64,000 nucleotides of DNA, taken from NCBI RefSeq assembly GCF_012184425.1, contig NZ_VTOW01000001.1, positions 1-64,000 of the forward strand, written 5' to 3'. Below are positions 23,735-52,395 of the stretch, in pieces. The position numbers were made by a program, and so were the translations under genes. The notes below the pieces were generated by a model that saw only the letters and a list, made by a program, of their open reading frames with translations, did not search any database and had not been told where the DNA came from. This DNA comes from Candidatus Manganitrophus noduliformans. GTDB taxonomy: Bacteria; Nitrospirota; Nitrospiria; SBBL01; Manganitrophaceae. Position 1 is the stretch's first letter. Every line of letters starts with the position of its first letter.

Positions 23735-23755
23735 GGGCGAGGCACCGCCTCGCCC
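23735..23755. repeat. GGGCGAGGC palindrome of the GTAGGGGC repeat family
   Basis: GGGCGAGGC (23735-23743) and GCCTCGCCC (23747-23755) form a 9-bp perfect stem. The right side continues CCTACA, as in the other copies, while the left outer arm is degraded to a G run. It lies between the NHL gene and the UvrD-family gene. Confidence 0.55.
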
Positions 23756-23769
23756 CTACAGTCCCCATC

Positions 23770-25602
23770 CTAATCGGCGAGGTGGGAAGCGGACCCGGAA
23801 CCCGATTGAGGAGATGGGATCGTTCCGATCATTTCGGTGAGAAATTGGCTCGGCCTGTTTCGAACCGGCCGCCCGAAACGGGTCCGCTCCTTCGACCAGA
23901 GGAGGTAGAGGCGTTCCTTCGCGCGGGTAATCGCCACATACATCAACCGCCGCTCTTCCTCTAATTCTTCTTCCGAGGACAACGCCGGCCGGAGCGGGAA
24001 GAGCCCCTGTTCGAGACCGCAGAGAAAGACGGTCGGCCATTCCAATCCCTTGGCGGCGTGGATCGTCAGCAGCTTCACGGAGTCCTCTTCATCCCGCAAC
24101 TCGTCTTGGACCGATCGGGTAAACTGCCACCGCAGAAAGGCGGAGAGCGAGTGGTCTTCCTGATTCTCCCCCTGCCAACGGCCCATCTTCTCGAAGAGCT
24201 TCAGAAGATGGGCCTCCTTCAGCGGATAACCCTCTTTTCGGTATCGCTCGGAGAACTGAAACCGGCGATCGACCTCCTTCGCCAGATCCAAAACGGTCGG
24301 ATACGCTCCCTTCGAGAGCTTCTCCTGAAGATCGAGAAGATGCTCTTTGAACCAGGACGAGGGAAGCAGATCGAAGAGAGGCCGCTCGGCGCGGGCCGCT
24401 TCGAGGTTGAGCGAGGAGAGAACCTCCGGTGAATAACGCTCCTTCGGAAGGATCTTCTTTAAATGGTAATCATCCCCCGGGTTGTGGAGGATAATCAAGA
24501 AGCTCAAGAGGTGCCGGACCTCTTCTTTCTCCCAGAAGGAGGAGGTCACCACCTGATAGGGGATCTTTCGAAGCTGGAGCGCCCTGGCGAGTGGAATTGC
24601 CTGCGCGTGGGTCCGATAGAGGATCGCCATCTCGGAAGGACGGCACTCCGCCTTTCCATAATCGCGTTTGATGATCGTCGCCACCGCCTCCGCCTCTTTC
24701 TCCGGGGTGTCGGCCTGCATCACGGAGACGGCGACCGATCCGGCCCAATCGGTCCGAAGCCGCTTTTCGAGCTGATATCGATTGTGGGCGATCAGGCGAT
24801 TGGCCGCCTCGACGATCGGACCGGTCGATCGATAGTTCTGCTCAAGACGAATGACCTCCACCTCTGGGACCATTTTCGGGAAGGAGAGGATGTGGTCGAT
24901 ATTCGCCCCGCGAAACCGGTAGATGCTCTGATAATCGTCCCCCGCCATAAAAAGATGCGACGGCCGCAGCAGATTGATCATCTCCCACTGATCCGAATCG
25001 GTATCCTGCACTTCATCGACCAAAAGATGGCTGAAGCGCGATTGATAGCTCTCGCGGACGGCGGGGTGCTCGCGAAGGAGAAGGTTGGCCGACTGCAACA
25101 GTCCGCGATAATCGAAAGCGTTTCCCTCCTTCAGCCGGCGCTGGTACTCGCGAAAAAGGGGATCGCTTTGGAAGAACCGGCCGGTCTGGAACGCCCGGAC
25201 CACGTCCGCCGGGTCGCGTTTGATCCCCAGCTCGTCGAGAATTTCGCGGAGCAGCTCCACCTGGTCGGATTGATCGTAGATGGAGAAGTTCTTTCGATAG
25301 CCGAGAATTTCTCCCCACCGCTCCAGCAGGGAAGCGGCAAAGGCATGGAAGGTCAAAAGGCTCAACTTGCGCTGCTCCCCGACCTCTGCCTCGATGCGGC
25401 GGCGCATCTCGCCCGCCGCATGGCGCGTAAACGTCAGCGCCAGCATATTCCAAGGGGAGATTCCCTCTTTCAGGAGCCGGACCAACCGGAGGCTTAAGAC
25501 CGCCGTCTTCCCGCTTCCGGCGCCGGCATTCACGAGGATCACCTGTGCGCGGCTCTCCACCGCCCGGCGCTGTGCTTCATTGAGATTTTCGATTAATTTC
25601 AT
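23770..25602 (-). CDS. UvrD/PcrA-family superfamily 1 helicase
   Basis: A 610-residue DNA helicase, shorter than PcrA/UvrD (about 720), with all SF1A motifs in order: N-x-x-Q-R-R-A-V at the start, Walker A N-A-G-A-G-S-G-K-T, L-L-V-D-E-V-Q-D-T-D (Walker B), G-D-D-Y-Q-S-I-Y-R-F-R-G-A, L-E-Q-N-Y-R-S-T, L-L-T-I-H-A-A-K-G-L-E-W and Y-V-A-I-T-R-A. It translocates 3' to 5' on single-stranded DNA. The chosen ATG at 25602 matches the family start; the frame extends to 25641 through a palindromic repeat and is not likely translated there. It follows, on the same strand, an SbcC-like ATPase gene 71 bases upstream, and may be its functional partner. Confidence 0.9.
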   Translation of the reverse strand: MKLIENLNEAQRRAVESRAQVILVNAGAGSGKTAVLSLRLVRLLKEGISPWNMLALTFTRHAAGEMRRRIEAEVGEQRKLSLLTFHAFAASLLERWGEILGYRKNFSIYDQSDQVELLREILDELGIKRDPADVVRAFQTGRFFQSDPLFREYQRRLKEGNAFDYRGLLQSANLLLREHPAVRESYQSRFSHLLVDEVQDTDSDQWEMINLLRPSHLFMAGDDYQSIYRFRGANIDHILSFPKMVPEVEVIRLEQNYRSTGPIVEAANRLIAHNRYQLEKRLRTDWAGSVAVSVMQADTPEKEAEAVATIIKRDYGKAECRPSEMAILYRTHAQAIPLARALQLRKIPYQVVTSSFWEKEEVRHLLSFLIILHNPGDDYHLKKILPKERYSPEVLSSLNLEAARAERPLFDLLPSSWFKEHLLDLQEKLSKGAYPTVLDLAKEVDRRFQFSERYRKEGYPLKEAHLLKLFEKMGRWQGENQEDHSLSAFLRWQFTRSVQDELRDEEDSVKLLTIHAAKGLEWPTVFLCGLEQGLFPLRPALSSEEELEEERRLMYVAITRAKERLYLLWSKERTRFGRPVRNRPSQFLTEMIGTIPSPQSGSGSASHLAD

Positions 25603-25626
25603 ATTCGCTTTCCATGAAATGTGATT

Positions 25627-25654
25627 GTAGGGGCGACGCATGCGTCGCCCCTAC
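25627..25654. repeat. Perfect 28-bp palindrome GTAGGGGCGACGCA/TGCGTCGCCCCTAC
   Basis: The two 14-base arms are exact reverse complements with no spacer. This is the best-preserved copy of the palindrome family seen in this window. It lies in the 71-base gap between the ATPase stop and the helicase start and would form a strong hairpin in their mRNA. Confidence 0.7.
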
Positions 25655-25672
25655 GCAAACCCGGCCGATTGA

Positions 25673-27733
25673 TTAAGCCGAAGCCATTGCCGAGTCGGCC
25701 ATCTGGATCATCTTCACTCCGAGGCGAGCGGCATCTCCCGGCGGAATTCCTTCCACCCCCGCGACAATGAAATGATCGAGGTGTCCTTCATCGACGAAGG
25801 CACAGAGCGCCTCGATGAACCGCCGGCGGTGGTGAAGGTCGACGCTCTCGAGATTATCGACCAGCAACAACCGGCAGCGCGGCTCACGGAAGAGAATCAA
25901 CGCCGTCATCAGCGCGGCGGAGAAGAGCACCCGCTCGCCCGTCGAGAGGGCTTCAAACGGGATGAAATGCTCGCCCCGCTTCCACCCCATCTCGAAGATT
26001 TCGTTTCCCCGAACATCCTGAAAGCGGAAGGTCAACTCTTTTTCAGGATCGATCGCGTGGAGCAGATCATTGACGATCTTCGAGAAGGGCCGGATCATCT
26101 CCTTGATCATCTCCCCCTGAAGCCCCTTCGGGCCGAGGGCCACGATCAGCTGTTTCAGCGCCTCGACGTTCGCGTCGGCCTTTTTCAGATCGACTTGGTT
26201 CTGCTGGTAGGCGATCCAGAGGGAGCGCCGCTCCTCCTGTTCGGCGAGACGGCGCTTCAGCTCCTCCAGATGGCGCTCGAGCCCCTCTTTTTGGAGAATC
26301 AGATCGGCCGGATCGGCATAACCGCCGTCGCCCGCCTCTTCCGCCTCCAGCCGGGCCAAGGCCGCTATCAGTTCCGCCTGCTTCTCCTCCCCTTGGCCGG
26401 CGCGCTGAAGCATCTCTTCCCAGACGGCGATCTGCTTTTGCGTTTCGCGTTCTTCCCGATCCAGCGACAGAGCGCGCGCCTGAAGGGGTCCGAGGCTCTC
26501 CTGCAATCCCCGGTAGCGCTGCCATCGCATCGATTGCAACGACTCGATCTCGCAGATCGTCATCTCCTGCGAGGAGAGTCGATCCCGTCCCTGCGTAATC
26601 ACCGGGGTGAAGTCGACCGGACAGCCAATCCCTTCAACCACAGGACAGGTCCCATGAATTGATTCAGCGCGATCGAGCCCTTTCTTCTCCATCTCCAATG
26701 CGATCTTCAGCGCATTCAGCCGCTTCTCCTCCTGCTCGATCTCGCCAAAGAGGGCGGCGGTCGCCTGCTCGACCTGGTCTCTTTCCGCTTGCATCGGCGC
26801 GCGATCAAACGACCGGCTCCGCAATTCGGCGATCTGCGCTCGGATCTTCTCAACGGAGGCCGCGGCGGCCTCCCGCTCAATCAAACGGGACCGTAATCCT
26901 TCGATCTCTCTTCCCCGCGCTTCCGCCGATTTTCGACGCGCCTCATCCTTGGCCAGCTCTTCCCGGATGAGGATGATCCGTTCTTGAATCTCTTCGATCT
27001 CCCGTTGAGTGGTCCGTGCCGCTTCGGAAGGAACGAACGGCTCCTGATTTCGGGTGTGAAGCATCCGGCGCGCCGCAGCGATTCCTTCCTTCTTTCGGAG
27101 GGACCAGAGGGAGAGCTCTTTTTTGAGATAGATCAGCATTCGATCGAAGTTCGACTGAAGATCGTGGCCCTCCGTCCAGAGGGCGAATGCCTTGTCGATC
27201 CAGGCGTGCAGTGTGAGGGAGCTGACAGGCGCGCGGACCGCTTGGATCAGCCGGCTCTTGAGATGGGGCTTGTCCCACCCGAGCCCCTTCGTCGGCGAGA
27301 GCCCGAAGAGAAACGCCCGCTTCTTCGCATCGGAGAGGGAGAGAAACGCATTGAGATCGAAAGAAACGGCAAAATCACCCACTTCTTCGGCGATGCGCCG
27401 ATGGGCGTCGGCCAGATTCTTCTCCCCTTGATGGGGCGAAACCCAAACCGAGGTCGAGACCGCCCCCCGGCTGAGCTTAAAGGTTCGGTGAAGGATAAAT
27501 TTTGCGTCGGTCTCGATCTCCACCGACATCTCCCGGCCGGAGGCAAGCTGGACGACCGAAGCCGGGGTGCGGCCCAGGCGCGGCTCATAGCCGAGAATGC
27601 CGACCATGACCGCCTGGAGCAAGGCGCTCTTGCCGGCCCCGTTCGGTCCGACCAGGAGCATCTTGGGAGCGATCGCCCACTCGGACCGCTTCCCCTTAAA
27701 GTTATGAAGACGAAGACGCGCCAGCTTCGACAT
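25673..27733 (-). CDS. SMC/SbcC/RecF-like ATPase with long coiled coil
   Basis: A 686-residue cytoplasmic ATPase of the ABC-type DNA-repair class. The N-terminus has the strand L-R-L-H-N-F-K-G and Walker A G-P-N-G-A-G-K-S (residues 29-36). Residues about 200-560 are mostly Glu/Arg/Leu-rich coiled coil, broken near 359-367 by C-P-V-V-E-G-I-G-C-P, a Cys pair at the position of the Rad50/SbcC zinc hook though with wider spacing. The C-terminal lobe has the ABC signature A-L-S-T-G-E-R and Walker B R-L-L-L-V-D-N-L-E-S-V-D. No nuclease or TOPRIM domain is present. It starts immediately after the stop codon of the 329-aa protein gene (TAA then ATG, with GGAGG upstream), so the two are translationally coupled. 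SbcD is absent. Confidence 0.8.
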   Translation of the reverse strand: MSKLARLRLHNFKGKRSEWAIAPKMLLVGPNGAGKSALLQAVMVGILGYEPRLGRTPASVVQLASGREMSVEIETDAKFILHRTFKLSRGAVSTSVWVSPHQGEKNLADAHRRIAEEVGDFAVSFDLNAFLSLSDAKKRAFLFGLSPTKGLGWDKPHLKSRLIQAVRAPVSSLTLHAWIDKAFALWTEGHDLQSNFDRMLIYLKKELSLWSLRKKEGIAAARRMLHTRNQEPFVPSEAARTTQREIEEIQERIILIREELAKDEARRKSAEARGREIEGLRSRLIEREAAAASVEKIRAQIAELRSRSFDRAPMQAERDQVEQATAALFGEIEQEEKRLNALKIALEMEKKGLDRAESIHGTCPVVEGIGCPVDFTPVITQGRDRLSSQEMTICEIESLQSMRWQRYRGLQESLGPLQARALSLDREERETQKQIAVWEEMLQRAGQGEEKQAELIAALARLEAEEAGDGGYADPADLILQKEGLERHLEELKRRLAEQEERRSLWIAYQQNQVDLKKADANVEALKQLIVALGPKGLQGEMIKEMIRPFSKIVNDLLHAIDPEKELTFRFQDVRGNEIFEMGWKRGEHFIPFEALSTGERVLFSAALMTALILFREPRCRLLLVDNLESVDLHHRRRFIEALCAFVDEGHLDHFIVAGVEGIPPGDAARLGVKMIQMADSAMASA

Positions 27734-28723
27734 TTATCCCTCCTTGGCGGGATTCTCGGCCGGTTTGGACGAACTCGCTATCCGTTCCTGATCTTCCATC
27801 GGAACGGCGCCGTATTCGTCTCCCTCCAGCGCCCCTTCCATGCTGACCTCTTCGAACCGCGCCTCTTCGGCCGCCCGCTCGACCTGGACCTCTCTCGGAT
27901 CGGTCTGGCCTTTTTCGATCTTCTCGCCGAGCTCGGCGAACTTCTTGAAATCGAAATCGTGCTTGAAGCCGTAGACCGTGATCTTGGCGACGCCGTTGTG
28001 GACCTCGACCGTCTTGGCCGCGATCGCCGGATGTTTCAGCAGCGCGTTTCGGGTGCAGATCGACTGTGCGTGGCGGTCGCCGAATTTTTGCCGGCTGACA
28101 TGCTGGTTGAAAACCTCCTGGATCTCCCCATGCGAGAGGTCGACCCAGAGGCCGACCGGATCTTCAATTTCAAAGAAGACCAGCGCCCGTCCGGGACGAT
28201 CGGGGGAGAGGGAAGCGGGCGGCTTCTCCTTCATCCCATAGGTCCCGCAGACCGGATAGCGCCGGACCTTCACCTGAAGGTCCTGGAGAAAGTAAGTGTA
28301 GACGTTGAAAAAGAGGGTGTAGTCGACGCCGACCATGTTCCCGATCGGGTTCGGACCGAAGATGATCTTCCGGACATAGACCGACTGGATCGCCCGCGTC
28401 TTGGGGTGCCGTTCGATGTAGGGGTTGGAGACCTCCTTCCCGTCGACGACGACCGAAGGAGGGGTCATGATGTTCAGGCCGGGAAGTTGGTTGAGTTTAT
28501 CGGCGCCGGCCGACGTGATCATCCAGTGCTCACCGATCCGCTGGATCTCTTTGTTGCGTTCGGAAAGGGAGACCGGCATCTTGCAAGCGCGCATGATCCC
28601 GGAGGCGTCCCGGCGGATAAAAACTTCTCCGTCGCCGAGGAGGGCGACGTTCTGATTTCGGAGCGCTTGGTTTTCTTTCTGGAGGGTTTCAAACGAATCT
28701 TTCTTAGCGGTAGGAATACTCAT
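27734..28723 (-). CDS. Unknown protein, possibly a RecT/Rad52-like single-strand annealing protein
   Basis: A 329-residue cytoplasmic protein I cannot assign with certainty. Residues 1-30 are polar and Gln/Asn-rich. The segment I-G-E-H-W-M-I-T-S-A-G-A-D-K-L-N near 65-80 and the helix H-A-Q-S-I-C-T-R-N-A-L-L-K-H-P-A-I near 232-248 recall RecT/Rad52-type annealing proteins, where a helix rich in A-x-T-(R/K)-A-x-x-R-A-L closes the core. The C-terminus (from about 270) is highly acidic (E-E-A-R-F-E-E-V-S-M-E-G-A-L-E-G-D-E), like the partner-binding tails of single-strand binding proteins. It is the first gene of a unit with an SbcC-like ATPase and probably the UvrD-type helicase, which supports a DNA recombination role. 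This remains inference. Confidence 0.55.
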   Translation of the reverse strand: MSIPTAKKDSFETLQKENQALRNQNVALLGDGEVFIRRDASGIMRACKMPVSLSERNKEIQRIGEHWMITSAGADKLNQLPGLNIMTPPSVVVDGKEVSNPYIERHPKTRAIQSVYVRKIIFGPNPIGNMVGVDYTLFFNVYTYFLQDLQVKVRRYPVCGTYGMKEKPPASLSPDRPGRALVFFEIEDPVGLWVDLSHGEIQEVFNQHVSRQKFGDRHAQSICTRNALLKHPAIAAKTVEVHNGVAKITVYGFKHDFDFKKFAELGEKIEKGQTDPREVQVERAAEEARFEEVSMEGALEGDEYGAVPMEDQERIASSSKPAENPAKEG

Positions 28724-29035
28724 TTTTTCTCCTTCTCTCCTGCAATGCGTTGATCTCTAATCGCAGGATGCAATGATCATCAACCCGCGGCTCAGCGAGA
28801 CTTTTTTCCAATGTCTCGTGAAGACCGCTCCTGTCACACATTTAATACGCAATCAAACGGAGCGACGGCGCGAAACAAGCGCCCGCGGGAGGATCAGGAG
28901 ATGCAAAGAGGCTGGAAGATCCTGAGAGGAAAACAGACGGAAAAACAGGACAACGAGAAGGAGCTTACAAAATCAAATTCAAAAAGCAAAAACCAGTCTT
29001 AAAACCTCACTCCGTTCTTACCTAAAACGCTTCTG
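28724..29035 (-). promoter_or_regulatory. Long untranslated leader of the 329-aa/ATPase unit
   Basis: About 300 bases between the predicted start site and the start codon, with no supported gene. There are purine-rich stretches and a short AGGATC/GATCCT inverted repeat near 28896-28925, but no riboswitch class I recognise. Confidence 0.35.
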
Positions 29036-29064
29036 TTTATAACATTTTAAGACCTCAATGTCAA
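29036..29064 (-). promoter_or_regulatory. Consensus promoter for the 329-aa protein/ATPase unit
   Basis: On the minus strand TTGACA (29059-29064), a 17-base spacer and TATAAA (29036-29041). This near-perfect sigma70-type promoter faces away from the pgpA promoter, giving two divergent promoters within 100 bases. Confidence 0.7.
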
Positions 29065-52312: not shown

Positions 52313-52395
52313 TTGTAGGGGCGACCGGCGGGTCGCCCAGGAGAGACAAGGGAAAACCAGGGCGAGTGCAGGGCGAGGCAGCGCCTCGCCCCTAC
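52313..52395. repeat. Composite GTAGGGGC-family palindromic element
   Basis: Two hairpins lie side by side: GGGCGACC/GGTCGCCC at 52319-52338 and GGGCGAGGC/GCCTCGCCC at 52371-52391. The outermost strings TTGTAGGGGC and GCCCCTAC are also mutual inverted repeats, so the whole 83-base unit is one element. It lies between the divergent valS and pyrE genes. Confidence 0.6.

What the first reader, a model, noticed from the sequence alone, without database searches (positions are those of the whole stretch)
23770..29064. Possible three-component DNA-handling cassette: annealing-like protein, SbcC-like ATPase, UvrD helicase
Seen in the sequence: the unknown 329-aa gene and a coiled-coil ATPase gene are directly abutting (stop TAA then ATG). 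They are preceded by a TTGACA-N17-TATAAA promoter and followed after 71 bases by a short UvrD-type helicase on the same strand. Established: ABC-type coiled-coil ATPases (SbcC, RecF, Rad50) and SF1A helicases act together in repair and phage defence, for example Gabija pairs an ATPase-nuclease with a UvrD-type helicase. Inference: the first protein has an annealing-protein-like helix and acidic tail, so this may be a recombination or anti-phage module. The ATPase lacks a TOPRIM or nuclease domain, so it is not a plain Gabija.
Basis: partly seen in the sequence, partly recalled or inferred. Interest (0 to 1): 0.72.

Follow-up and report, generated by a model that had tools for sequence, protein, structure and literature searches.

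The report
Phage-derived DNA annealing and repair cassette
Three adjacent genes in a manganese-oxidising bacterium form a DNA-recombination kit also found, in the same order, in many uncultured viruses: a new type of strand-annealing protein followed by an SMC-like ATPase and a helicase, in the slot where related viruses carry a DNA-chewing nuclease.

Summary
Manganitrophus chromosome: A (329 aa, no Pfam family), B (SMC/SbcC-like ATPase, abutting) and U (UvrD-type helicase), behind a promoter conserved in 5 of 5 relatives. The cassette was found in all six genomes of the genus examined, at a housekeeping locus (pgpA-cinA-recA), under purifying selection (dN/dS of A 0.06-0.08, recA 0.05), and in no other Nitrospirota searched.

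A relatives occur in about 66 IMG/VR viral contigs but in no named phage. Among 54 non-redundant A genes, 25 are followed by a Cas4-like PD-(D/E)XK exonuclease and 29 by B then UvrD, never both. In most of the latter B is split into two genes just after a CxxC hook. In one contig a Sak4 recombinase sits where A would be. A core model of A (pLDDT 83) resembles RAD52 (Z 6.6, 116 residues) and less so RecT (Z 3.6); both are below the tool's safe level.

Best reading: a new single-strand-annealing protein family in a phage recombination module, domesticated by Manganitrophus, with B-UvrD in the exonuclease slot. It is not Gabija, and not SbcCD. Annealing, resection and host function are untested.

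The parts
29036..29064 (-). promoter TTGACA-N17-TATAAA with TG extended -10, 312 nt upstream of gene A
   Evidence: conserved in 5/5 Manganitrophus loci
27734..28723 (-). gene A, 329 aa: annealing-protein candidate of a family without a Pfam/NCBIfam entry (PHROG 32428, function unknown)
   Evidence: homologues; core model
28034..28129 (-). long helix of A (residues 199-230) carrying the most conserved motif, A219-Q220 ... R225-N226
25673..27733 (-). gene B, 686 aa: SMC/SbcC-like coiled-coil ABC ATPase without nuclease domain (PHROG 32642)
27626..27649 (-). Walker A of B (G29-PNGAGK-S36)
26621..26647 (-). C363-x7-C371 in the middle of the coiled coil, at the place of the Rad50-type hook
25934..25948 (-). 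ABC signature of B (LSTGE, residues 596-600)
25838..25870 (-). Walker B region of B (LLLVDNLESVD, 622-632): Asn in place of the usual catalytic Glu
25627..25654 (.). palindromic GTAGGGGCGACGC repeat between B and U; it overlaps the spurious N-terminal extension of U
23770..25602 (-). gene U, 610 aa: UvrD/PcrA-like SF1A helicase with intact motifs, lacking the C-terminal region of PcrA
   Evidence: start set by relatives

Best explanation
The cassette is a phage-type homologous-recombination module fixed in the Ca. Manganitrophus chromosome. A is a single-strand annealing protein (SSAP) of a new family with a probable RAD52/RecT-like (dsRBD-like) fold. B, a Rad50/RecF-like ATPase with a hooked coiled coil, is expected to bind or tether DNA ends or junctions. 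U, a short 3'-5' SF1A helicase, is expected to open the duplex so that A can load on the exposed strand and anneal it to a complementary strand. B and U take the operon slot that a Cas4-like exonuclease occupies in sister phages, so they probably supply single-stranded DNA (unwinding, perhaps with a host nuclease) instead of a dedicated phage exonuclease. In the host it is maintained as a repair or recombination operon. Shown: gene order, conservation, selection, partner alternation, motifs. Inferred: annealing by A, strand exposure by B-U, repair role.
For: Same order A-B-UvrD in viral contigs (L012 fused B; L015-L017, L019-L021, L026, L029, L030 and L130-L158 split B). 25 of 54 non-redundant A genes are instead followed, usually overlapping, by a nuclease that matches PHROG 1990 'Cas4-domain exonuclease' (14 of 15 members, best 1.9e-18) and conserves D, E-x-K, Q and four Cys; no contig has both. 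In L023 a Sak4 (PF13479, 2e-23) recombinase precedes B-UvrD. Core model of A, pLDDT 83, pTM 0.78: RAD52 Z 6.1-6.6 over 113-116 residues in four entries, RecT 7ub2 Z 3.6 over 111; the other leading rows are mostly the dsRBD-like domain of ribosomal uS5. RAD52 Z rose from 5.3 to 6.6 with the deeper alignment. Known SSAPs are classed as dsRBD-like (PMC8093625). dN/dS of A 0.055-0.08, U 0.065, recA 0.054. Housekeeping flanks, same in relatives.
Against: Foldseek gave no match at E<=0.001 for A, and the VIA Z-values lie under 8, where common arrangements occur. Profile comparison of A with single RecT, Bet, Erf and Sak sequences found nothing. No Pfam SSAP model matches any of 16 members even at E<=1. 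B relatives elsewhere accompany a nuclease (SbcD, or PD-(D/E)XK in L013/L027), so B alone need not replace one. Split-B phages are a single clade and nuclease-linked phages another, so the alternation may rest on few events. No biochemical data.
Confidence: 0.72

Rival explanations
1. Anti-phage defence module of the Gabija/Lamassu/Septu type (ATPase plus helicase that senses and attacks phage DNA).
For: PADLOC gives weak LmuB and AriA matches to B and a GajB match to U.
Against: The GajB match is unspecific: the host's PcrA scores 1.9e-116 against 6.5e-88 for U. No TOPRIM or other effector domain. Found in temperate-phage early regions beside integrase, repressor and DnaB-type genes. The locus is the same across the genus with recA-like constraint, not patchy.
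Confidence: 0.08
2. Replication or fork-restart module: A is a non-annealing ssDNA-binding or helicase-loading protein, and B-U remodel forks for phage replication.
For: Phage copies lie among replication genes. The SSAP-fold match is below the safe Z.
Against: The nuclease partner in 25 non-redundant phage A genes and Sak4 in the slot in L023 are typical of recombination modules.
Confidence: 0.15
3. Decaying prophage remnant without function in the host.
For: Relatives of all three genes are in phages; no other phage genes lie next to it.
Against: Intact in all genus genomes except one MAG in which recA and alaS are broken too; dN/dS 0.06-0.18; promoter kept in 5/5 loci.
Confidence: 0.05

Closest known systems
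Lambda Red (Bet-Exo) and RecE/RecT two-gene recombination modules
   Same: Annealing protein encoded next to the enzyme that exposes single strands; A has exactly such an exonuclease neighbour in 25 of 54 non-redundant phage genes.
   Different: A matches no RecT/Redbeta, Erf, Rad52 or Sak3 Pfam model; in the window the nuclease is absent and B plus UvrD stand in its place.
RAD52 / RecT SSAP superfamily (dsRBD-like fold; PMC9870868, PMC8093625)
   Same: Predicted core of A superposes on RAD52 over 113-116 residues and on phage A118 RecT over 111.
   Different: Z 6.6 and 3.6 are suggestive only; no detectable sequence relation.
SbcC/Rad50 (T4 gp46) with SbcD/Mre11 (gp47)
   Same: B has Walker A, an LSTGE signature, a coiled coil with mid-coil cysteines, and matches PHROG 77 SbcC-like at 1.6e-27.
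   Different: No SbcD gene beside it and none found in the host genome by TIGR00619; Asn replaces the catalytic Glu; in most phage relatives the protein is split after the hook, with Walker B E-A-A-E-L-D.
PcrA/UvrD/Rep helicases
   Same: All SF1A motifs checked are present; PDB neighbours PcrA, Rep, UvrD.
   Different: 610 aa, lacks the C-terminal region of PcrA; not placed with the host's seven paralogues in the tree.
Gabija (GajA-GajB)
   Same: ABC ATPase plus UvrD-like helicase.
   Different: No TOPRIM domain; third gene A; phage recombination context; GajB match unspecific.

Membership tests
RAD52 SSAP superfamily (for A) | RAD52-type fold | tested here: inconclusive
   Core model pLDDT 83; RAD52 Z 6.1-6.6, 113-116 aa, rmsd 4.2-4.4; RecT Z 3.6, 111 aa; below the Z 8 guideline
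RAD52 SSAP superfamily (for A) | ssDNA annealing activity | not testable with these tools
   needs protein
RAD52 SSAP superfamily (for A) | operon with a strand-exposing nuclease or other recombination genes | tested here: met
   25 nuclease-linked non-redundant relatives; B-UvrD in the rest; Sak4 takes the slot in L023
RecT/Redbeta (PF03837), Erf (PF04404), Rad52/22 (PF04098), Sak3 (PF06378), Sak4 (PF13479) as sequence families (for A) | match to the family model | tested here: not met
   no match at E<=1 in any of 16 members
SbcCD / Rad50-Mre11 (for B) | ABC ATPase head halves joined by a coiled coil | tested here: met
   Walker A 29-36, LSTGE 596-600, SMC_N 7.9e-8, phrog_77 1.6e-27
SbcCD / Rad50-Mre11 (for B) | CxxC zinc hook at the apex | tested here: inconclusive
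   window, L012 and L007 have C-x7-C; split phage forms have CxxC near the end of B1
SbcCD / Rad50-Mre11 (for B) | SbcD/Mre11 nuclease partner | tested here: not met
   none adjacent; TIGR00619 finds none in the genome, rings in 13 of 14 controls
UvrD/PcrA/Rep SF1A helicases (for U) | SF1A helicase motifs | tested here: met
   GAGSGKT 40, DEVQD 209, QNYRS 268, TIHAAKGLEWP 526, VAITRAKERLY 569; Pfam UvrD N and C domains
Gabija | GajA with ABC ATPase plus TOPRIM domain | tested here: not met
   no TOPRIM in B; GajA models E >= 4.6e-4, P-loop only
Gabija | GajB helicase | tested here: inconclusive
   match 6.5e-88, but host PcrA scores 1.9e-116
Lambda Red-type SSAP-exonuclease module | exonuclease gene adjacent | tested here: not met
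   none in the window cassette; present in the sister phages

The most novel reading that the evidence does not exclude
A strand-annealing recombination system that works without its own exonuclease: a new SSAP family is fed by an SMC-type ATPase and a UvrD-type helicase that unwind rather than digest DNA ends. One lineage of manganese-oxidising bacteria has taken it over as a chromosomal repair pathway beside recA.
Probability: 0.4. Interest if true: 0.78.

Novelty: new variant of a known kind. Interest (0 to 1): 0.6.

Why it matters
Annealing proteins are the working part of phage recombination and of recombineering, and the recognised families are few. A further family, with two interchangeable partner sets (Cas4-like exonuclease, or SMC-like ATPase plus helicase), lets one ask directly whether annealing recombination can run on unwinding instead of digestion. 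The naturally split SMC-like ATPase, cut just after its hook, is a compact natural dissection of a Rad50-like protein. The Manganitrophus copy is a candidate case of a bacterium domesticating a phage recombination module.

Tried and rejected
tblastn of A and B and three further A relatives against 50,697 named phages: no match. Single-sequence scans of IMG/VR with A and B: nothing; alignments including the Clostridioides plasmid homologue were needed. E. coli RecT as IMG/VR query gave only near-identical copies, useless as a profile. hhalign of A against single Bet, RecT, Erf and Sak sequences: no signal, as was the lambda Exo control; single-sequence templates make this a weak test. First A model (16 sequences) was poor (pLDDT 69) and its Foldseek lists uninformative; the Foldseek PDB list itself was not rerun with the better model. 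Gabija rejected by the PcrA control. A conserved nuclease gene inside or next to the A-B-UvrD cassettes was looked for and not found; a NinB-like gene occurs in five, confirmed only weakly in one. PF12075 and HALZ hits to A are below cut-off and discarded.

Full report
What was checked. The three genes are on the minus strand: A 27734-28723, B 25673-27733 and U 23770-25641 with the probable start at 25602. A's TAA abuts B's ATG. The promoter TTGACA-N17-TATAAA (29064-29036) is kept in all five Manganitrophus loci compared, although most of the spacer and leader vary. The nearest named genome is Ca. Manganitrophus sp. GAC4, Nitrospirota.

Family assignment. A has no Pfam match above cut-off and no NCBIfam or PADLOC match, but matches PHROG 32428 (1.3e-54). 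B matches SMC_N/AAA families, PHROG 32642 (1.7e-78) and SbcC-like PHROG 77 (1.6e-27). U is a UvrD/PcrA-type helicase. PHROGs 32428 and 32642 have unknown function.

Distribution. A occurs once in the genome. Of 296 and 396 Nitrospirota genomes searched with two different profiles, only the window's genus has it. B is in all six genus genomes sampled, with A and U beside it (in some loci cut by the contig end). The flanks are pgpA, cinA, ligT-like and recA on one side and an NHL-repeat protein on the other, and are shared by L001 and L002. dN/dS between genus members is 0.055-0.08 for A, 0.11-0.18 for B and 0.065 for U, against 0.054 for recA and 0.17 for the neighbouring NHL gene. One MAG (L001) shows A and B broken, but recA and alaS are broken there too, so sequencing error is likely.

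Phage relatives. The only plasmid hit, in Clostridioides pESS17301a, carries both A and B homologues with a DarB-like protein between them. With that divergent pair in the alignment, IMG/VR yielded about 66 contigs with A. They fall into two arrangements without exception: A then a nuclease N, or A then B then UvrD. In 28 of the 29 non-redundant cases of the second kind (all but L012) B is two genes: an N-terminal half with Walker A ending soon after CxxC, and a C-terminal half with LSGGE/Q and E-A-A-E-L-D in nearly all. L142 is truncated after B1. N matches the Cas4-domain exonuclease PHROG in 14 of 15 members and conserves D128, E150-x-K152, Q182 and four cysteines. On the A tree the nuclease-linked and the split-B phages are each one group, with the Manganitrophus lineage and L012/L007 on separate long branches. 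A-B-UvrD therefore occurs in three deep lineages, but long branches make the order of events unsafe. In L023 a Sak4-type gene (PF13479) stands upstream of a B-UvrD pair that groups with the split-B phages.

Structure of A. A 259-residue core modelled from 56 sequences reached pLDDT 83 and pTM 0.78. Against PDB chains preselected by Foldseek, the longest alignments among the leading rows are to human RAD52 (8rjw, 8bjm, 5jrb, 1kn0: Z 6.1-6.6, 113-116 residues, rmsd 4.2-4.4). Ribosomal uS5 (dsRBD-like domain) ties in Z with 61-86 residues, and phage RecT 7ub2 has Z 3.6 over 111 residues. A published survey places RecT, Erf, Sak3 and Rad52 in the dsRBD-like fold (PMC8093625), and PMC9870868 describes the shared RAD52 fold. 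In BFVD several named recombination proteins appear at E about 0.1. This is suggestive, not proof: no E-value is below 0.001 and Z stays under 8.

Mechanism. Shown: linkage, order, alternation of partners, motifs and constraint. Inferred from established roles: SSAPs need single-stranded DNA, which exonuclease partners provide in lambda Red and RecET. Since N and B-U alternate beside A, B-U most likely serve that need by unwinding, with B tethering or loading. UvrD has been proposed to act in end processing in Deinococcus (PMC2806897), which makes such a role plausible. SMC-like genes beside phage recT, and sbcC beside sak4, have been noted before (PMC8093625), so an SSAP next to an SMC-like ATPase is not new in itself; I found no report of the A family or of the A-B-UvrD cassette in the papers searched.

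Rivals. Defence is disfavoured: the host's own PcrA matches GajB better than U does, no effector domain is present, and phage copies sit beside integrase, repressor and replication genes. A replication-restart role remains possible. A dead remnant is disfavoured by selection and promoter conservation. B relatives elsewhere keep a nuclease (SbcD-like in L031, L032, L039, L052, L054, L058; PD-(D/E)XK in L013, L027), so it is the absence of any nuclease in the A-B-UvrD cassette that is unusual.

Limits. Hosts of the viral contigs are unknown. Bacteria outside Nitrospirota were surveyed only by one single-sequence scan. SbcD-like and repressor labels for phage neighbours are read from the sequence, not from a family search. 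No experiment has been done on any member.

Noticed in passing
L007:17812-24102 (Clostridioides plasmid pESS17301a): An A homologue lies just downstream of a ThiF (E1-like), prokaryotic E2 family D and hypothetical-protein gene run, which looks like a ubiquitin-like conjugation cassette, with a DarB-like helicase-methylase between A and B.
   Followed up: partly
L130-L158, L015-L030 (IMG/VR): SMC/Rad50-like ATPase naturally split into two genes soon after a CxxC hook; Walker B changed to E-A-A-E-L-D in nearly all copies.
   Followed up: partly
L144:3066-3461, L149:8252-8671, L153:12830-13321, L143:14457-14864, L158:16085-16630: Related small genes inside or just after the A-B-UvrD cassette resemble lambda NinB/Orf recombination mediator (only one weak Pfam match, E 0.0037).
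   Followed up: partly
L013:7399-12013 and L027:7597-11983: A Gp3-like (recombination directionality factor-like, PF18897) gene, a PD-(D/E)XK nuclease and a B relative in a row: a further partner combination around B.
   Followed up: partly
window 23750-23759, 25627-25654, 52315-52395: Repeated palindromic intergenic GTAGGGGCGA elements (5 matches, 0.1 expected by chance), one between B and U.
   Followed up: partly
L086:166-2232 and L084:1489-3417 (same genome, outside the window): A DndD protein above the NCBIfam cut-off and a second DndD-like ATPase, pointing to DNA sulfur modification or a related system in the host.
   Followed up: no
L076, L077, L078 (same genome): Three similar UvrD-like helicases; those in L076 and L077 lie next to a gene that looks like a CHC2 zinc-finger (primase-type) protein, apparently a repeated gene pair.
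   Followed up: no
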